Under the pieces are notes generated by a model. That model ran no database searches. It was not told the origin of the DNA and worked only from the letters and a program-made list of their open reading frames with translations. A stretch of DNA of 64,000 nucleotides from contig JBAGRR010000001.1 in assembly GCA_036924835.1 (NCBI GenBank), forward strand, positions 5,471,001 to 5,535,000. Reading direction: 5' to 3'. Below, in pieces: positions 53,374 through 63,965 of the stretch (within the stretch, counting starts at the first letter, position 1; each line of letters starts with the position of its first letter). Source of the DNA: Nitrobacteraceae bacterium AZCC 1564 (GTDB lineage: Bacteria > Pseudomonadota > Alphaproteobacteria > Rhizobiales > Xanthobacteraceae). Both the position numbers and the translations under genes were made by a program.

Positions 53374-53767
53374 GCTGATCTGCGTTGCTCCCGACCGTGT
53401 TCACGAATTCTGGCCCCATGTCTCCGACCTGATCCATCGCGCCATCCGCCGCACCAATCTTTCGCATTCGCAGGACATCGACTTCGATGTACTGAACGGC
53501 GACGGCCTGTTGTGGATCGCCTGGAACGGCAGCGCGGTGGAGGCCGCGGCGACCACATCGCTGATCGAAACCGATGCAGAGAAGGTGTGTGTGCTCACGG
53601 CCTGCGGCGGCGCGAAGATGCGCCGCTGGCTCGGCCTTCTCGGCCAGATTGAAGATTACGCGAAAGCAGAAGGTTGTTCGCGCGTCCGCATATTCGGACG
53701 CAAGGGCTGGGTGCGTGTGCTTGAACGCTATCGCATCCGCAACGTCATCCTGGAGAAGGAACTCTGA
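53363..53767 (+). CDS. GNAT-fold-like phage protein
   Basis: A 134-residue protein. The DFDVLNGDGLLWIAWNG segment and AKAEGCSRVRIFGRKGWVRV fit acetyltransferase-fold proteins found at this place in short-tailed phage genomes. No acetyl-CoA loop is certain, so enzyme activity is unclear. It overlaps the S74 gene by one base (TGATG). Confidence 0.6.
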   Translation: MSVELICVAPDRVHEFWPHVSDLIHRAIRRTNLSHSQDIDFDVLNGDGLLWIAWNGSAVEAAATTSLIETDAEKVCVLTACGGAKMRRWLGLLGQIEDYAKAEGCSRVRIFGRKGWVRVLERYRIRNVILEKEL

Positions 53768-54855
53768 TGGGCGGTGAAAGCAAGCAGACCACCACGCAGC
53801 AAAGCCAGACGCAGCCTTGGGAGGCGGCGCAACCCGCGCTCAAGGGCATTCTGGATCAGCTCGGCACTCTCATTCCGAACAGCGGCCTGTCGCAGACGTC
53901 GCAGAACGCGATCCGCCAGTTGCAGCAGAACGCGCAGGCGGGCAATCCCTATGCCCCGCAGATCGGCAACCTGGCGACGAACCTGCTGAGCGGCGGCGGC
54001 GCGACCAGTCAGTCGGGCAACATCAATCAGGCGTATCAGGATTATCTGAAAGCGACCCAGCCGCTGGCGTCGAACACCAATTACGATCCGTACACCACGC
54101 CGGGGTTCGCGGATGCGCTCAAGACGGCCAGCGCCGACATCGTGAATGGCGTCAATGGTCAGTTCGCCGCGGCGGGCAGAGACTTTAGCGGGGCAAACTC
54201 ACAGGCTCTTGCGCGCGGTCTCGCGCAGGGGTTGGCGCCAACAATCGCGGCTCAATACAACCAGAATGTCCAGAACCAGCAGAATGCTGCGAGCAACTTG
54301 TACTCTGCCGGCAATACGACTGCGGGTCTTCAGTCCGGCTTGCAGCAGCAGGGCATTCAAAATCAGGTGCAGGGCGTGCAGACGGCGAACGATGCACTCA
54401 ATGCGCAGAATTATGGGCCGCAGCAGTTGCTGCAGCTCGAGCAGTTGAAGCAACAACTGCCGGCGCAGACGCTGGCGTTGCTGGCGCAGATCGGTGTGCC
54501 GATCGCGGGCCTCGGCCAGCAGTCGAACGGCACGAGCGAAACGACGAGTCAGATGTCTGGCGCGGATCAGTTCGCGAAGATCATGGGCGGCATCGGAAGC
54601 CTTGGGAATCTCGGCAATCTTAGCAAGCTTCCGTTTCTGTCCGATCGCCGCGTGAAGGAAGATATCGCCCAGATAGGTTCGCTGTTTGATGGCACACCGG
54701 TTTATCGCTTCCGCTATATCGGCCAGCCCGGATTCCAGATCGGCCTTATGGCCCAGGACGTCGAGAAGACGACGCCGGAAGCCATTGGCCAACTCGGGCC
54801 ATACAAGACGGTCGACTACAAGCTCGCAACTGACAGGTCCTTGCAGGTTGCCTAG
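53767..54855 (+). CDS. Gln/Asn-rich fibre or ejection protein with S74 chaperone-like end
   Basis: A 362-residue protein. The first 270 residues are Q/N-rich, low-complexity and helical (GESKQTTTQQSQTQPWEAAQ). The C-terminal end has FLSDRRVKEDIAQIGSLFDG, then PVYRFRYI and IGLMAQDVEKTTPEAIG, matching the peptidase-S74 intramolecular-chaperone domain that folds trimers and cleaves itself. It could be a fibre or an ejection protein. A damaged copy of its middle section is at 60160-60527. Confidence 0.75.
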   Translation: MGGESKQTTTQQSQTQPWEAAQPALKGILDQLGTLIPNSGLSQTSQNAIRQLQQNAQAGNPYAPQIGNLATNLLSGGGATSQSGNINQAYQDYLKATQPLASNTNYDPYTTPGFADALKTASADIVNGVNGQFAAAGRDFSGANSQALARGLAQGLAPTIAAQYNQNVQNQQNAASNLYSAGNTTAGLQSGLQQQGIQNQVQGVQTANDALNAQNYGPQQLLQLEQLKQQLPAQTLALLAQIGVPIAGLGQQSNGTSETTSQMSGADQFAKIMGGIGSLGNLGNLSKLPFLSDRRVKEDIAQIGSLFDGTPVYRFRYIGQPGFQIGLMAQDVEKTTPEAIGQLGPYKTVDYKLATDRSLQVA

Positions 54856-54899
54856 CGACGAATCTTTGAAGCACGCAATAAATTGTAAGGAGAGATCGC

Positions 54900-56063
54900 A
54901 TGGGATTTCTTGATTATTTCGATGAAGATACGCCTCTTATCGGAGGATTGTTTGGTGGCGCGAATGCAGCGCCGCCTGTTCCTCCGGTAAACATTCCTGG
55001 AAGTGACGGTAACGCGCCTTCCGCACCGCTGCCGATCGCTGATGCCGCAAGCACCGGGCTTGCAGCGCAGGGGCAAGCGTCGCCCGCGCTGCCGGGCTGG
55101 CTCCAAACGGCGCGGGACCCATACAGTGCCGCACCGCCTATCGCAGGGCTTACGCAAGCTCAATTCAACGGCCGGTTTGCTCCAATGGCAAATGGATCGA
55201 ATTCGCCTGTCTCTCCTCAAGCAGTAACTCCGCCATCGTCTGCTAATGATACTTCTCGCTTTGATGACGCAAAATTCGATCCGCAGACATATGCGGGACG
55301 CAGTGCATCGCCATCGTGGTGGGAGCATGCGACCTACGAGACCCCAAACGTGCAGGGCTTTGGTCGCAGAAAATGGCCGTCATTTGAATCTATGAACTTA
55401 GCGCAAAAGTACCTTCCATACATCGTCTCAGCGGAGAGCGGCGGGAAACCGAGCGCAGAGAATGATGAATCCAGCGCAGTCGGCCTTGGTCAAATTATAG
55501 AAGGCACCGCGCTGGGTCTATATCGAGACTATCTCGGCCTTGACGGGGGAGGTGAGGATAAAAAGGGGAATCGCTTAGATCCCAGAAAGGATAAGCCGCT
55601 GCTTGATCAAAGACGCGATCCGCAGCGGGGTCTGCAGCTTCTGCTTTTGAATACCGCAAAGAATATCGATCTGCAGCGGCAAAAAAAAATCAATCCATCT
55701 CTGGAAAATACCTATTTGATGCATTTTTGGGGGGAGAAAGGTGGATTGAGGGCGCTAAGTTCGGATCCCTCAATGTCTACTCTCGAAGTCCTCGGGGAAA
55801 AAGCGCTCAAAGCTAACAAGCTTTTGCGGGATAAAACGAATGGACAGGCGCAAGCTGAAGTAAATGAACGCATCAACAAACATAGAACTGAAGTAGATAA
55901 GAGAAGCAGAGAAAATGGCTATCGGTTGGCGCCAGCTGCGCCAATCGCGTTTCCACACGCCTCGAGTCAATTCATGCCCGCGCGCAATGGGACGATCGAT
56001 CTTTCAGAGCTTCAAAATACGCTCAAAACTTCGGGAAACCCGATAGTCTTCCTCGGACGATGA
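54900..56063 (+). CDS. lytic transglycosylase-like virion protein
   Basis: A 387-residue protein starting MGFLDYFDEDTPLIGG. The first 140 residues are Pro/Ala/Ser-rich. At about residues 172-200 a soluble lytic transglycosylase-like motif appears: YIVSAESGGKPSAEN with the likely catalytic glutamate, then SSAVGLGQIIEGTA. It would open peptidoglycan during DNA entry. The end is KTSGNPIVFLGR. A 35-codon remnant of its beginning lies at 60560. Confidence 0.75.
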   Translation: MGFLDYFDEDTPLIGGLFGGANAAPPVPPVNIPGSDGNAPSAPLPIADAASTGLAAQGQASPALPGWLQTARDPYSAAPPIAGLTQAQFNGRFAPMANGSNSPVSPQAVTPPSSANDTSRFDDAKFDPQTYAGRSASPSWWEHATYETPNVQGFGRRKWPSFESMNLAQKYLPYIVSAESGGKPSAENDESSAVGLGQIIEGTALGLYRDYLGLDGGGEDKKGNRLDPRKDKPLLDQRRDPQRGLQLLLLNTAKNIDLQRQKKINPSLENTYLMHFWGEKGGLRALSSDPSMSTLEVLGEKALKANKLLRDKTNGQAQAEVNERINKHRTEVDKRSRENGYRLAPAAPIAFPHASSQFMPARNGTIDLSELQNTLKTSGNPIVFLGR

Positions 56064-56162: not shown

Positions 56163-56384
56163 TCAGTCCGACGGACCTCCGTGGCGGTTGCTTCGCCAGA
56201 AGTTCGCCAATAGGTCGGCGAGTGCGGTCGCCCCCCACATGGTCAGAAGGGCAACCAGGCTTGCTAGATAGTGGTTGTCTGTCCATGGCCATTCAATACT
56301 GGCCATCATCACGGCGAGAAAGATCAAGCTTTGAAAGAGCTGCCTCCTGAGTAATGCCCAATCAAATTTTTGAGTATTAGTCAT
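56163..56384 (-). CDS. small two-helix membrane protein
   Basis: A 73-residue reverse-strand protein with two hydrophobic segments (LLRRQLFQSLIFLAVMMASI and LASLVALLTMWGATALADLL). It lies in the right part of the prophage, on the strand opposite the structural genes, where phages often carry lysogenic-conversion genes. AGGT precedes the ATG. It could be a holin-like or superinfection-exclusion protein, but nothing proves it. Confidence 0.55.
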   Translation of the reverse strand: MTNTQKFDWALLRRQLFQSLIFLAVMMASIEWPWTDNHYLASLVALLTMWGATALADLLANFWRSNRHGGPSD

Positions 56385-56847: not shown

Positions 56848-57170
56848 ATCGGAAGAGGGTTGACAGAGGCGTTGCTGGCACCATCAAGCTACTATCTGAC
56901 GAGCAGGGCGAGGTTCGTCTCCGCATCGCGGAGGCATTACTGTCGCGTGGAGAAAAGAATGGACCCGACCCGGCGCTCAGATTGAATGACACGGTTCAGG
57001 GCGCTGCGTTGCGTCGTCTGATGGCATCCCGATCGGAAGGTGGTGCGGCGCTTGCCGCTGTGCCCTTAAGCGACGGATATTCGCTATTTTTTCGGCATAG
57101 AGAAGAACGCCGGGGGGATTCTTACGTCGCCTATAAGTGGCTTCGCGAGATACAAAACAAAAATAACTAA
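56848..57170 (+). pseudogene. 5'-truncated phage gene remnant
   Basis: An open frame without a good start runs from a stop at about 56845 to 57170: AGTIKLLSDEQGEVRLRIAE, then QGAALRRLMASRSEGGAA, ending NKNN. An adjoining frame upstream (GLTEALLAPSSYYLT) seems to continue it after a frameshift. I do not recognise the family. A TTG at 56982 could start a 62-residue product. Considered a decayed gene. Confidence 0.4.
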
Positions 57171-57296
57171 CACCAGGAGGAATAATTCCGTGAGGAAATC
57201 AGGCAAGCCAGGCCCCCAGAATGGCTCTTTTGGCTTTTCGCGATCTGACTCCGGTTCGTGCGGCGGCAGATCGACAGGTTTATCGGGGTCTTTCAT
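57084..57296 (-). CDS. small single-pass membrane protein
   Basis: A 70-residue reverse-strand protein: polar and proline-rich N-terminus (MKDPDKPVDLPPHEPESDRE), one membrane helix (LTELFLLVLVIFVLYLAKPL), basic end. It overlaps the forward remnant above by 87 bases. Whether it is expressed is uncertain, but it is coherent and lies next to other reverse-strand genes. Confidence 0.5.
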   Translation of the reverse strand: MKDPDKPVDLPPHEPESDREKPKEPFWGPGLPDFLTELFLLVLVIFVLYLAKPLIGDVRIPPAFFSMPKK

Positions 57297-57454: not shown

Positions 57455-58431
57455 TCATTGAGTTTTCTTCCCGCCATTTTGAGTAGCTTCGGTCCAGCGT
57501 TTGGACCATGCCGCGAGTTCGGCTTTTGCCGGCTGAGTCCATTCTTTCACCGGAGGCTTCACGACAATCGGATTGCCGGGTGTCTTCCATGCAAAGAAGA
57601 CTTGCTCGCTGGTAGGATCGACCGCAAACATTAACGATTTGTCGCTGCATTCGTTGGGGACACAGGACGTCCCGATGATGACATTGCCCTTGTACTCCAC
57701 CGTCCCTTGTCCACCGCGCACCATCGACATCACTGTTTCGCGATAACCCGCCAACAAAGTCTCAACCGGAATGGTCATGCTGGAATGTTTGAAAATATCT
57801 TCCGGCTTGGACAGGCGCTTGCTGCGCAGGTCATCCAAAAGATCGTCGGCTGCAGTGTTGGAAGGTGCAAAACTCCTGGTTTTCAAAGAGGTCAAGAACG
57901 CTTCATTCTCCCTCAAGCGTTCTGCCCATCTATCGAGTTCGGTCCGGACTTGAGGAGTCCACTGTTCGATAGAAGGTCTTATGGCGAGTGGTTTGTCGCT
58001 TAGCTTCCAAGCAACGAATACTGCTTTGTTCTTTGCATCGAGAACAAAGATAATAACGTCCGACACACAATGATGGGGAAGGCAGGACTCTGCAACGAAA
58101 AGATCATCCCTGTGCTCAATGCTCCCCGGTCCGTTCACGACATTCTTGATCGTGTTTTCCCCGCCGCCGATCAAAGTTTCGATCGTTTCCTTCATCTGCG
58201 GATAAGCAAAAAGATCCAGAGGATGGTTCACGCGCCCAGCGGAAAGGTCGGCCCAAAAATCAGAATGATTTTTTGCTACCGGTTTTTTAGCTTCGCTGAT
58301 CTGAGCGCGAAGGGGGCAGCACTTACGAGAATAGCAAAAAGAGCGACAGCTAAAAAGGTGAGATGATCCGCGCTCGCGGGAGCCATCTTGCTGATGATGC
58401 GCCCGAAGGCGTTGAGGAGCTGGCGGGACAT
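57455..58431 (-). pseudogene. tandem lysozyme-inhibitor (Ivy)-like protein, frameshifted
   Basis: The mature part lies in one frame: two domains of about 115 residues, each ending with a CxPxxC loop (SCLPHHC; SCVPNEC) followed by a hydrophobic strand (VIIFVLDAKNKAVFVAWK). The signal peptide (FLAVALFAILVSAAPFA) lies in another frame starting at ATG 58431 (SRQLLNAFGRIISKM). The two frames meet at a run of five G on the plus strand (58312-58316). One added base restores an exported protein, so this is a one-base deletion, a sequencing error, or programmed slippage. It is a tandem duplicate of the gene at 58500. A role as lysozyme inhibitor is inferred from the Ivy-like motif. Confidence 0.65.
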
Positions 58432-58499
58432 GAAATATTCCGATTGCAACGAGACTGGGGAGTGAACAGTTGTGAATGTGAGCAGCGGGCCGCCAAGCA

Positions 58500-59789
58500 T
58501 TATTGAGGTTTCTTTCCACCGTTCTGAGAAGCTGCGGTCCAGCGCTTGGACCATGCTGTGAGTTCAGCTTTTGCAGGCTGCGGCCATTCTTTCACCGGAG
58601 GCTTCACGACAATCGGATTGCCGGGCGTCTTCCACGCAAAGAAGACCTTCTTGCTGGTGGGGTCGAACGCAAACATCAACGATTTATCGTCGCACTCGTT
58701 GGGGAGACAGGACGTTCCGACGATGACATTGCCTTTGTCTTCGACCGTCCCTTGTCCGCCGCGCACCATGGACATCGCTGTTTCACGGTAGCCCACGAGC
58801 AAAGTCTCCATCGGAATGACCATGTCGGGATGTTTGAATATCTCTTCCGGCTTCGACAAATGCCTGCCGCGAAGATCATTCAAGAGATCATCGGTCACGG
58901 CATCGGCGGGAGCGCGAGCTGGAGGCTCCGGCTCACGCGGACGCTTGCGGAAAGCTTCGTGATCTTCCCATTCTTTAACCCACGCGTTGAGTTCAACGCG
59001 GGCCAGCGGCGACCATTGTTCGGGAGCAGGCTTTATGACGGGCGGCTTTTCAAATAGCCTCCACGCGACAAATCTTTCTCTGGTTTTTGTATCGAAGACG
59101 AAAATGATTTGTTCGTCGTCGCAAAAAGCATTGGGCCTTGGGCAGCCTCTTGCAACGAAGAGGTCGCCTTTGTGTTCGACGTTCCCCGCTCCAAATGCAG
59201 CATGAGCGATGCGATCTTCATCTTTCCCCATCCAGGCTTTGATCGCTTCCTTCATCTGAGGATGACTGAACAGAAGCAGCGGGTGGTCCACACGCCCCGC
59301 GGAAATATCCTGCCAGAGATCAGAATCCTGAAATGGATTTGGCAGATTGGCATCGGCTTCCGCCGACATGCCTTTGCCGGGCGTCCATGTCCATGTTTTG
59401 GGCTTATAAGCCTTCGATCTCAGAAAGCGAATCGCATCTTTCCCAACTTCGTAGGTGATCTCGCCGCAGTCACCTTTCGGGCCGTGCAAACGAAAGGGGC
59501 GACCCTTTGGAAATGACACGACGAAAATTGCGGGCTCAGGGCAGATCGTCCCACCTCCACTACTTGACCCGATGAGAACACCAACACCTGCGATGGTGCG
59601 CTCTTCGTCGATAGACACATATGTATCTTCGACGACGGTCTTTCCATCGATCGTCAGCCGCTTCGCGCCATCCTTCTCGACTATTCTCACCTTGTGGCCG
59701 AAATCCTCCGCCTGAGCGAGAGCGATGGTTACGCATGACCCGACAATGGCTGCGCCAATGCCAAGAAGAGCAAGCCAGGCCTTGTGCAT
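58500..59789 (-). CDS. tandem lysozyme-inhibitor (Ivy)-like exported protein
   Basis: A 429-residue exported protein with signal peptide (WLALLGIGAAIVGSCVTIAL, cut near AQA). After an N-terminal region of about 145 residues come two tandem domains: QDISAGRVDHPLLLFSHPQM to FVFDTKTRERFVAWRL (loop with CPRPNAFC) and IFKHPDMVIPMETLLVGYRE to FAFDPTSKKVFFAWKTPG (loop CLPNEC). The CxPxxC loop and the strand after it match the CKPHDC region of Ivy, a C-type lysozyme inhibitor; the key histidine is not kept here. I chose ATG 59789 (GGAG upstream, clean signal peptide); ATG 59852 is possible. Confidence 0.75.
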   Translation of the reverse strand: MHKAWLALLGIGAAIVGSCVTIALAQAEDFGHKVRIVEKDGAKRLTIDGKTVVEDTYVSIDEERTIAGVGVLIGSSSGGGTICPEPAIFVVSFPKGRPFRLHGPKGDCGEITYEVGKDAIRFLRSKAYKPKTWTWTPGKGMSAEADANLPNPFQDSDLWQDISAGRVDHPLLLFSHPQMKEAIKAWMGKDEDRIAHAAFGAGNVEHKGDLFVARGCPRPNAFCDDEQIIFVFDTKTRERFVAWRLFEKPPVIKPAPEQWSPLARVELNAWVKEWEDHEAFRKRPREPEPPARAPADAVTDDLLNDLRGRHLSKPEEIFKHPDMVIPMETLLVGYRETAMSMVRGGQGTVEDKGNVIVGTSCLPNECDDKSLMFAFDPTSKKVFFAWKTPGNPIVVKPPVKEWPQPAKAELTAWSKRWTAASQNGGKKPQ

Positions 59790-60159
59790 ACGATGACTCC
59801 GAGGAAAGCGCCCAACGATGCTCCAAAGGGTGCGAAGAAAATAGCGCGTCATAGCGTCCTCAAGTCTCGCTGCGAATGAGATCGGCCACGATTGAGATGA
59901 GGGCTGCGAACGGCCATCGAGACGGTCGCTCACGGAAAGCACTAGGACACTGGCGGGGCATGGAATCTTCCGATCGCGACGGTGAGCATTGGCTTTTGGC
60001 CCGAAAACACTTGCAATCTGGAACGTTTCAGGAACAAATACAACCATAGGCGCTATCGTTGAGGTCTGCACCCAGTGTCCGTGATCTATTTGCAACAGGT
60101 GGGACCACGGTCATGTCTCGGGAGATAGTTTGTCCGACGGCGGCGGGCCGTGGAATGTC

Positions 60160-60527
60160 ACTCAAGGCGTCGCGCCAACAATCGCCGCCCCATACAACCA
60201 GAATGTCCAGAACCAGCAGGGGGCGGCCGGCAATCTGTCTTCCCGTTGGCAACACGATTGGGCGCCTTCAGCCTGGCGTACAGCGGCGGGGCATTCAAGT
60301 GCAAGGCGCGCAGACGACGAACGACGCGTTCAATGCGCAGAACTATACACCTCAACAGATTATGCAGCTCGAGTGGTTGAAGCAGCAACTGCCAGCGCCG
60401 ACGCTTGCGTTGCTGGCGCAGATCGGCGTCCCGATCGCGGGCCAGCCAAACGAATGGCACGAGGGAGACGGCGAACCAGATGTCCGGTGCGGATCAGTTC
60501 GCGAAGATCATGGGTGGGATCGCTTAG
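60160..60527 (+). pseudogene. degenerate copy of the S74 protein gene
   Basis: Three frames joined by frameshifts match the intact gene at about 54235-54590. VAPTIAAPYNQNVQNQQGAA comes first, then NAQNYTPQQIMQLEWLKQQL and TLALLAQIGVPIAG, then MSGADQFAKIMGGIA and a stop. The S74 domain is absent. Together with the following remnant it shows that the fibre/transglycosylase block was duplicated and has decayed. The gap 59853-60159 shows nothing else. Confidence 0.8.
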
Positions 60528-60559
60528 TTAGGCGGCATGTTTGGAGGAGGAAAGAAGCA

Positions 60560-60667
60560 ATGGGGTTGCTTGATTATTTCGAAGAAGACGCGCCGCTCTT
60601 TGGACGGGTGTTCGGTGGCGCGAATTCTTCCGTGCAGCGGTCGGGGGTTATCGTAAATCTTCGATGA
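60560..60667 (+). pseudogene. 35-codon remnant of the transglycosylase-like gene start
   Basis: A short intact frame (MGLLDYFEEDAPLFGRVFGG, then VQRSGVIVNLR and stop) with GGAGGAGG upstream. Its first part matches the beginning of the gene at 54900. Its last part matches the end of the gene at 62788 (VQRSDAIVDLR), including the following TGATGAT. It looks like a large internal deletion of an ancestral gene. It may still be translated as a 35-residue peptide. Confidence 0.7.
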
Positions 60668-60697: not shown

Positions 60698-61117
60698 ATG
60701 TTTGGACAAAGCCGATCGTTGAAGTTCTTTTTGATAACTCTATCGATGCTTGGTTTTTCGCAGCATGCTCATGCGCGGGACGTCGAAATTGCCTATGCAA
60801 TTAGCATTGAAGGTAAGATCGATAAGGGGAAAGTTGAGCGCTGCGAAGTCGGTACGCAATGTCGAATAGTGTCTAAAGACACAGGTCTTACGATTTTCAT
60901 ACGCCTCCTCGATCCGGACGGACGCCGCGCTTACATCCGAGTGGAGGGTGACGTTGGCTGTTGTTATTTCTGGGACGGCGACGGTTCTGTCTCAGTCGAT
61001 CCACACGTGCCATTGCATCGCTTCAATATCTATAAGGGGCGGGGTCGCAAAAGGAATGAAGTTATCCTGAATCAAAAAATCGGCGAGCTGTACGTTGGGT
61101 TCAAAGAGCCCAATTGA
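60698..61117 (+). CDS. exported protein of unknown function
   Basis: A 139-residue protein with a signal peptide (LKFFLITLSMLGFSQHAHAR) and a beta-rich mature part with four cysteines (ERCEVGTQCRIV and VGCCYFW). No known family. It is the first member of the A-type series (see findings) and is followed, 45 bases later, by the coiled-coil gene at 61163. The ATG lacks a strong ribosome-binding site. Confidence 0.6.
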   Translation: MFGQSRSLKFFLITLSMLGFSQHAHARDVEIAYAISIEGKIDKGKVERCEVGTQCRIVSKDTGLTIFIRLLDPDGRRAYIRVEGDVGCCYFWDGDGSVSVDPHVPLHRFNIYKGRGRKRNEVILNQKIGELYVGFKEPN

Positions 61118-62245: not shown

Positions 62246-62791
62246 GTGCACTTGCTAAAAGCTGTTGGTCGATGGGCTGCTTTGCTCTTGGTAGTTGTTA
62301 TCGCCGTCATAGTTTTTCGGGGCGACCTCGAGCGGGCCTCTGAAATCCGGGCTGCGGTGAGTTGGAATCAGCTGGACATACATGTCGATGAACTTCGCTG
62401 TCTTTCAGTTGGCCCACGCGGGATCATATTTAATGAGCGACAATATCCCAGCGAGAAGCTGGTGAGCACAATTGGTGCGCAGCTTGCGATCCCGCGGATA
62501 TATGTAAACGCAGACGTTGCTGAGTGCCCCTGGGGTTTGTCGCTGTCGGGAGAGAAGAGAGACATATTCGCTGTGCGCTATCGCGATGAAATTGCGCGTT
62601 ACGCAATGTCAGCAATCATCTGCGAACGACTACCCGATGGCACGCCAAATCTCGATCGATGTCTTTCGAAGGACATCTACGTCTTCAACCGCAGCGTGGC
62701 AGTTGATGAGATTTTTTTGGTCGCGCTCACCGGGCTGGCAAAAAAGCAAACGAGCAAATGGGAAGCGTTCCAAGTTGAGAGGGCGAAATGA
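62246..62791 (+). CDS. membrane-anchored protein of unknown function
   Basis: A 181-residue protein starting with GTG (GGAGATCTAA precedes it). The N-terminal membrane anchor (GRWAALLLVVVIAVIVF) points the rest outward, with several cysteines (LRCLSVG, ECPWG, ICERLPDG, RCLSKD). No known family. It overlaps the next gene by four bases, so the two form an operon. Confidence 0.65.
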   Translation: MHLLKAVGRWAALLLVVVIAVIVFRGDLERASEIRAAVSWNQLDIHVDELRCLSVGPRGIIFNERQYPSEKLVSTIGAQLAIPRIYVNADVAECPWGLSLSGEKRDIFAVRYRDEIARYAMSAIICERLPDGTPNLDRCLSKDIYVFNRSVAVDEIFLVALTGLAKKQTSKWEAFQVERAK

Positions 62792-63416: not shown

Positions 63417-63965
63417 ATGACGCGCGCTGTTTTTCGTTGGTTTGTTGCTGTTGCTATCGCGACAGGCTCCCTGGTCGCTCCATCTCGATGGAGTGTTGCC
63501 CTTGCGCAAGATGCGCGAAGCTCTCCGGCTGTCGCACAGGCGGGAGCGACCTGTCCCTCTCGTGAATTCAGTGCGTTCTTTAAGGCCTTTTCCACGCGCT
63601 CAGACGTGCAGAGAAGTTTTACGCGCTTCCCGCTTGAATACGGCAAGTTCAATGTTGACGCGATCGATACAGATGAGGAATTCAAGACAAGGCTCATTGA
63701 GAGATTTGAAGGCGTGCCTCTGCTGAACGAGGGCGTGATCTTTCCAAGCAAGGAGGAAAGAAAGAAAAACAGGCTTCATGTAAAAACTATAACGCGTGGA
63801 AACTCCAAACACGGTCCAGATGCTGATCCTGAGAGTGTCATCAATGATTCTGAAAGCGCGACAGTAACGCTATTCGTCCCTGATACAGGTTTTCGCATCC
63901 ACTATCGCTTCCGGAGGGATTCCCGTTGTTGGTTTCTGTACGGCATTTCTGATCGATCAATTTAG
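63417..63965 (+). CDS. exported DUF4348-like protein
   Basis: A 182-residue protein with a signal peptide (FRWFVAVAIATGSLVAPSRW, cleaved near ALAQ). The mature start CPSREFSAFFKAFSTRSDVQ and RSFTRFPLEY resembles the FSxFFxxFxxxxxxQxxxxxFPL signature of DUF4348-type exported proteins. Possibly the A-type member of a further pair; no B-type partner is seen before the window ends 35 bases later. Function unknown. Confidence 0.6.
   Translation: MTRAVFRWFVAVAIATGSLVAPSRWSVALAQDARSSPAVAQAGATCPSREFSAFFKAFSTRSDVQRSFTRFPLEYGKFNVDAIDTDEEFKTRLIERFEGVPLLNEGVIFPSKEERKKNRLHVKTITRGNSKHGPDADPESVINDSESATVTLFVPDTGFRIHYRFRRDSRCWFLYGISDRSI

What the first reader, a model, noticed from the sequence alone, without database searches (positions are those of the whole stretch)
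57455..59789. Two adjacent genes each with two Ivy-like lysozyme-inhibitor domains in a prophage
Four copies of a domain of about 115 residues occur, each with a cysteine-bounded loop (CLPNEC, CVPNEC, CLPHHC, and the longer CPRPNAFC) followed by a strand such as SLMFAFDPTSKKVFFAW. The loop and the upstream METLLVGYRE...GG pattern fit Ivy (CKPHDC). Ivy inhibits C-type lysozymes in the periplasm; the key loop histidine is changed in all but one copy. On a prophage, exported lysozyme-binding proteins could block peptidoglycan entry by other phages, or guard against host or phage muramidases. Tandem Ivy domains in one chain are unusual to my knowledge.
Basis: partly seen in the sequence, partly recalled or inferred. 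Interest (0 to 1): 0.72.

Follow-up and report, generated by a model that had tools for sequence, protein, structure and literature searches.

The report
Prophage tandem Ivy-fold enzyme inhibitors
A bacterial prophage carries two neighbouring genes that each encode two copies of a domain shaped like a known inhibitor of cell-wall-cutting enzymes, and related prophages carry similar double inhibitors right next to the wall-cutting enzyme thought to travel in the virus particle, which suggests (but does not prove) that the resident virus uses them to keep other viruses out.

Summary
In detail: four Ivy-like domains in two adjacent minus-strand genes of a prophage. A predicted model of one copy matches only Ivy crystal structures well (Z 10.2-10.7, next 4.6); a second copy matches Ivy at Z 9.0. 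By sequence the link is weak: Pfam Ivy is below its cut-off, and the profile match rests on the cysteine loop. The genes belong to a Rhizobiales family (unknown N-domain plus one Ivy-like domain), doubled here. Gene A lacks the N-domain, and its signal-like segment lies in another frame; its domains look selected. The new evidence is context. Of 28 family genomes with the strongest related-phage match, 6 carry a true Pfam Ivy beside phage terminase/portal genes; 5 of these lie 142-340 nt upstream of a lytic-transglycosylase-like gene, and 4 have two Ivy domains in one chain. None of 56 control genomes has Ivy. An unrelated phage group carries single Ivy beside endolysin and terminase. Best reading: exported inhibitors that stop a virion's transglycosylase from opening the lysogen's wall, functionally like T4 Spackle. 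The target is inferred, not shown.

The parts
58500..59852 (-). Gene B: signal peptide (judged by eye), N-domain, two Ivy-like domains; starts at ATG 59852 or 59789
59355..59711 (-). N-domain of gene B, about 120 residues, unknown, propeller-like in the model
   Evidence: alignment; model; search (unresolved)
58920..59342 (-). Gene B Ivy-like domain 1 with the longer loop CPRPNAFC (59121-59144)
   Evidence: Ivy match Z 9.0
58503..58904 (-). Gene B Ivy-like domain 2 with loop CLPNEC (58692-58709)
   Evidence: Ivy match Z 10.2-10.7
57863..58297 (-). Gene A Ivy-like domain 1 with loop CLPHHC (58067-58084)
57455..57862 (-). Gene A Ivy-like domain 2 with loop CVPNEC (57647-57664)
58276..58431 (-). 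Signal-peptide-like segment upstream of gene A, in a frame different from the domains; in-phase A AAA AAC at 58282-58288
57084..57296 (-). Small proline-rich hydrophobic protein downstream of gene A in the same direction; possible third gene of the operon
   Evidence: relatives beside transglycosylase genes in L136 and L144, another in L131
54900..56063 (+). Phage gene with lytic-transglycosylase (SLT-like) domain, the proposed target type
   Evidence: phrog_4067 E 5.5e-15; Pfam SLT 19.9 bits under cut-off 21.3
53767..54855 (+). Phage ejection-type protein used to find related prophages
   Evidence: phrog_4287 E 5.6e-26

Best explanation
Genes B and A encode exported tandem Ivy-fold proteins. 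Each domain should present a disulphide-closed loop into the cleft of a muramidase-type enzyme, as Ivy does with lysozyme. The most likely target is the lytic-transglycosylase domain that particles of this phage type carry: the resident prophage would place the inhibitors in the periplasm so that an incoming related particle cannot open the peptidoglycan (superinfection exclusion). Shown here: Ivy fold by prediction for two copies, tandem duplication, a phage setting, and recurrence of Ivy next to the transglycosylase gene in related prophages. Inferred: export, disulphide, inhibition, target, presence of the enzyme in the virion, and the exclusion phenotype. I put 'inhibitor of a peptidoglycan-cleaving enzyme' at about 0.75 and 'target is the virion enzyme' at about 0.45.
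For: Fold; profile-profile score 46 against at most 19.7 in 100 column shuffles. Phage setting and transglycosylase gene. Related prophages: Pfam Ivy in 6 of 28, all beside phage terminase or portal genes, 5 of 6 at 142-340 nt upstream of the transglycosylase gene, 4 of 6 with two domains in one chain; 0 of 56 controls. Second phage group with Ivy. Selection on gene A. Literature: Ivy can inhibit a lytic transglycosylase (PMC10746161, passages read); a periplasmic inhibitor of a virion lysozyme gives exclusion in T4 (PMC7677548, abstract and passages).
Against: No enzyme or infection data. In the window the pair is on the opposite strand and 1.4 kb from the transglycosylase gene, unlike the tight same-strand order elsewhere. 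The window's Ivy lineage is otherwise chromosomal or plasmid-borne, with no phage or viral-contig match. E. coli Ivy inhibits MltA and MltB only weakly (PMC10139938, passages). Gene A is split between frames. 22 of the 28 related genomes have no Ivy, and several of their prophages have a transglycosylase gene without it.
Confidence: 0.45

Rival explanations
1. Cell-wall housekeeping: the proteins restrain the host's own lytic transglycosylases, or set the timing of the phage's own lysis enzymes, rather than acting on incoming particles.
For: The family is mostly chromosomal or plasmid-borne; some plasmid copies lie beside an L,D-transpeptidase gene; control of autolysis has been proposed for Ivy (PMC10746161, passages). 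In PHB10-type phages Ivy lies beside the endolysin.
Against: Does not explain why, in the searched family genomes, Pfam Ivy was found only in this phage type and next to its transglycosylase gene.
Confidence: 0.25
2. Classical protection against lysozymes of animals, protists or competing bacteria (lysogenic conversion).
For: Ivy's founding activity; gene A domain 1 keeps a histidine in the loop; PHB10-type phage Ivy has the classical CKPHSC loop.
Against: Loop histidine lost in 3 of 4 window copies although 14 of 15 single-domain relatives keep it, and kept in only 1 of 10 domains of the related prophages (sequences printed).
Confidence: 0.12
3. Decaying cargo: duplicated genes that no longer have a function in a degenerate prophage.
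For: Frame change in gene A; degenerate phage-gene copies next door; absent from the other genomes of the genus searched.
Against: No stop in 280 codons; domain-2 differences by codon position 19/8/36 and dN/dS about 0.16-0.28 between the copies, where a drifting copy should give about 0.5 or more; gene B is intact.
Confidence: 0.13

Closest known systems
Ivy, inhibitor of vertebrate lysozyme (Pfam PF08816; PDB 1GPQ, 1XS0, 1UUZ, 4PS6)
   Same: Fold (Z 10.2-10.7 and 9.0), cysteine-bounded loop between strands, and the CxPNEC loop type that also occurs in Pfam members (6 of 20)
   Different: Below the Pfam cut-off; two domains per chain; gene B has an added N-domain; loop histidine mostly lost; no activity data
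Rhizobiales N-domain + single Ivy-like domain proteins (unnamed; e.g. WP_010875065 of pNGR234a)
   Same: Same domain order and conserved residues
   Different: One Ivy-like domain, loop histidine kept in 14 of 15, no phage setting recognised in those inspected
Tandem Ivy proteins of related prophages (L154, L156, L158, L157)
   Same: Two Ivy domains in one exported-looking chain, in a related prophage, and in three of four directly beside the transglycosylase gene
   Different: Different Ivy lineage (over the Pfam cut-off), no N-domain, upstream of and co-directional with the transglycosylase gene
T4 Spackle
   Same: Proposed role: periplasmic block of a virion muralytic enzyme
   Different: Spackle is an alpha-helical bundle with an allosteric mechanism (PMC7677548); no relation by fold

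Membership tests
Ivy (PF08816) | Score over the curated Pfam cut-off (21 bits) | tested here: not met
   Gene A 16.3 bits, gene B no match; 0 of 14 domains of alignment A6 match Ivy at E <= 1
Ivy (PF08816) | Ivy fold | tested here: met
   B domain 2: Z 10.2-10.7, rmsd 3.0-3.5 over 108-110 residues, next row 4.6; B domain 1: Z 9.0 over 107 residues. Gene A domains not modelled separately. Foldseek's own E-values are weak, best 0.016
Ivy (PF08816) | Cysteine-bounded loop between strands | tested here: met
   In all four copies; three have four residues between the cysteines, one has six. Disulphide geometry not measured
Ivy (PF08816) | Loop histidine (CKPHDC) | tested here: not met
   1 of 4 copies; but also only 8 of 20 Pfam matches in the order, so it does not define the family
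Ivy (PF08816) | Export to the periplasm | tested here: inconclusive
   Gene B start looks like a signal peptide by eye; gene A segment is in another frame; no predictor was at hand
Ivy (PF08816) | Inhibition of C-type lysozyme or lytic transglycosylase | not testable with these tools
   Needs an assay
Spackle-type superinfection exclusion | Phage-encoded periplasmic protein that inhibits a virion muralytic enzyme | not testable with these tools
   Only the gene setting was tested

The most novel reading that the evidence does not exclude
Temperate phages of this host family carry a cassette in which a virion-delivered lytic transglycosylase is paired with a cognate, exported, often double-headed Ivy inhibitor that acts as immunity and superinfection exclusion. 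The double-headed architecture arose at least twice from different Ivy-type families, with loops retuned from lysozyme to the virion enzyme.
Probability: 0.35. Interest if true: 0.8.

Novelty: new variant of a known kind. Interest (0 to 1): 0.62.

Why it matters
Ivy is studied as a defence against animal lysozyme, yet its natural targets are debated. If phages pair it with their virion transglycosylase, that gives Ivy a concrete natural role, a route by which such inhibitors evolve, and a class of exclusion proteins that could be looked for in other phages beside their muralytic enzymes. My paper searches listed no report of phage-borne Ivy as an exclusion factor; only open-licence PMC papers were searched and I read passages, not whole texts.

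Tried and rejected
Pfam, PHROGs and NCBIfam on genes A and B gave no more than the sub-threshold Ivy match and one weak PHROG of unknown function. phmmer of gene B against solved structures gave noise; the domain profile gave two Ivy chains at E 0.8-0.9, below an unrelated chain at 0.4. The structural search of viral models gave no clear match. N-domain: Foldseek and VIA-align rows are tied and propeller-like, not resolved. Programmed frameshift in gene A: the heptamer is in phase, but no stimulatory structure stands out (z -0.37, 0.05 and -0.40) and no second genome carries the gene, so recoding, mutation and sequencing error stay open. Homology of the signal segments of A and B: the protein score is reached by 1 of 500 shuffles, but the DNA score by 37 of 300; undecided. 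The small ORF 56163-56384 gave no match in related prophages. The N-domain+Ivy family is absent from the 28 related genomes, so the Ivy there is a different lineage.

Limits: the 28 genomes are those with the strongest of 75 matches (the window's own genome, also among the 75, set aside); many of the other matches cover only the C-terminal part. The 56 controls were picked by me from handles not listed as matches; a few may not have been in that search, and cases and controls are not matched by genus. One search read 17 stretches from 16 genomes. L156 has Ivy beside a portal piece but I saw no transglycosylase gene on the 1.2 kb left of that contig. L157 has both genes cut short. L159 and L160 are identical to the G272 locus over 10,980 bases and were not counted as independent.

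Full report
OBSERVATION. The two genes lie on the minus strand at 57455-58519 (A) and 58500-59852 (B). Gene B reads as a signal peptide (by eye), an N-domain of about 120 residues and two Ivy-like domains. Gene A carries two Ivy-like domains. The loops are CPRPNAFC and CLPNEC (B), CLPHHC and CVPNEC (A). A profile containing only B's first copy finds the other three at E 8e-35 to 4e-27. The 3' halves of A and B, including bases past the stop codons, are 83% identical over 430 bases, so A arose by tandem duplication. Domain 1 is 46% and domain 2 82% identical in protein, so domain 2 was duplicated or homogenised more recently.

IS IT IVY? By sequence, only weakly. Pfam Ivy matches A at 16.3 bits (cut-off 21) and B not at all. 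Against an alignment of 13 Pfam-Ivy matches from the same order, the family profile scores 46 (probability 93%), while 100 column-shuffled controls reach at most 19.7. With the loop masked the score falls to 20.7, so the sequence link rests on the loop. By structure the link is firmer. The model of B domain 2 (mean pLDDT 77.7, 8 sequences) matches four Ivy entries at Z 10.2-10.7 and nothing else above 4.6; Foldseek alone is weaker (best E 0.016, Ivy at ranks 1-6). The model of the N-domain plus domain 1 (pLDDT 81.2) matches Ivy over domain 1 at Z 9.0 and 8.4. The two gene A copies were not modelled separately. I conclude Ivy fold, outside the Pfam family as now bounded.

FAMILY. Relatives occur on rhizobial plasmids (15 of 72,556 plasmid records match), in 5 loci of the genome collection, and in 18 of 397 genomes of the order including this one; those read in full have the same N-domain and one Ivy-like domain, except one short protein without the N-domain. 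In these searches no other genome showed two Ivy-like domains of this family in one frame. Inside its genus only this genome of 29 has it. The loop histidine is kept in 14 of 15 single-domain relatives of alignment A8, but in 1 of 4 window copies.

GENE A FRAME. The segment that looks like A's signal peptide ends at 58276, in a frame different from the domains. An in-phase A AAA AAC lies in the overlap, and a start codon at 58500 overlaps B's stop. The domains themselves show purifying selection between copies: dN/dS 0.096/0.60 for domain 2 and 0.44/1.57 (near saturation) for domain 1, with no stop in 280 codons. No RNA structure signal was found. Whether A is made by recoding, is freshly broken, or is misread cannot be told from one genome.

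PROPHAGE AND NEIGHBOURS. The upstream plus-strand genes match terminase, portal, major head and ejection proteins. Gene 54900-56063 matches a phage transglycosylase family (E 5.5e-15) and Pfam SLT just below cut-off. Downstream lie an M23 peptidase gene and a tail-collar gene. I did not search systematically for an integrase or repressor. Pieces of the ejection gene recur at 60 kb and again beyond the window. A small hydrophobic protein, 57084-57296, has relatives next to the transglycosylase gene in L136 and L144, and another in L131.

RELATED PROPHAGES. The ejection protein matched 75 of 381 genomes of the family. I took the 28 strongest besides the window's own. Pfam Ivy occurs in 6 of the 28. 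All six lie in this phage type, beside terminase or portal genes. In five the transglycosylase gene follows 142-340 nt downstream in the same direction; one of those five (L157) has both genes cut short. In four the Ivy gene encodes two Ivy domains in one chain (L154, L156, L158, and L157 with its second domain cut). Of 56 family genomes not listed as carrying the ejection gene, none has Ivy; Fisher p 9e-4. The six are relatives, and cases and controls are not matched by genus, so this p value overstates independence. The window's own family was not found in these 28 genomes. Tandem Ivy architecture in this phage type thus arose from two different Ivy-type lineages.

OTHER PHAGES. Bona fide Ivy is also encoded by Escherichia phage PHB10 (QBJ00744, annotated hypothetical; Pfam E 1e-19), the only one of 50,697 phage records found with three Ivy queries, and by 32 viral contigs. 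In those contigs an endolysin match lies in 25 of 32 and a terminase match in 26 of 32 of the fetched stretches, and all 32 loops are CKPHSC. So phage-borne Ivy recurs, there with the classical loop.

MECHANISM. By inspection the phage transglycosylases start without a signal peptide while the Ivy proteins have one, so they would meet in the periplasm, most plausibly when an incoming particle ejects its enzyme; that the enzyme is in the particle is itself inferred. Ivy of P. aeruginosa can inhibit the lytic transglycosylase MltB (PMC10746161, passages), although another paper says that purified IvyP2 has no inhibitory capacity in vitro (PMC5526577, passages), and E. coli Ivy inhibits MltA and MltB only weakly (PMC10139938, passages). 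T4 Spackle shows that a periplasmic inhibitor of a virion lysozyme gives superinfection exclusion (PMC7677548, abstract and passages), by a different fold and mechanism. I therefore favour superinfection exclusion or immunity against a virion transglycosylase, at about 0.45, within a broader 0.75 for inhibition of some peptidoglycan-cleaving enzyme. The looser arrangement in the window (opposite strand, 1.4 kb) is the main point against transferring the argument from the related prophages.

Noticed in passing
window 54235-54965 and 60172-60625; G000:C1:5539216-5539428: The ejection-protein 3' part plus the start of the following MG(F/L)LDYF gene occurs three times, once intact and twice as pieces, each followed by different genes: a cassette-like array.
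   Followed up: partly
L065:4950-6368: A gene with the same MGLLDYF start as the transglycosylase gene but a different C-terminal part, without Pfam match; possibly another delivered enzyme.
   Followed up: no
L155:11874-15882, L154, L146: In related prophages portal N-terminal pieces are repeated, each beside a peptidoglycan-active gene (M23 or transglycosylase), and the portal gene looks split by inserted modules.
   Followed up: no
L079-L110; MK524177.1 14588-15001: PHB10-type phages carry a true Ivy between endolysin and terminase, annotated hypothetical.
   Followed up: yes
L154:11652-12467, L155:5216-5629: phrog_13619, listed as unknown function, matches these phage Ivy proteins, so that PHROG may be an unnamed phage Ivy family.
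   Followed up: no
G646:C4:6416-8120; G630:C63:29902-31626: Two neighbouring genes each with N-domain plus Ivy-like domain: a separate tandem gene duplication in another genus of the order.
   Followed up: no
window 60698-61117, 62246-62791, 63417-63965: Further small proteins with export-like starts and no Pfam match downstream, so the accessory region seems rich in exported products; a paralogue of the last is at L065:1687-2289.
   Followed up: no
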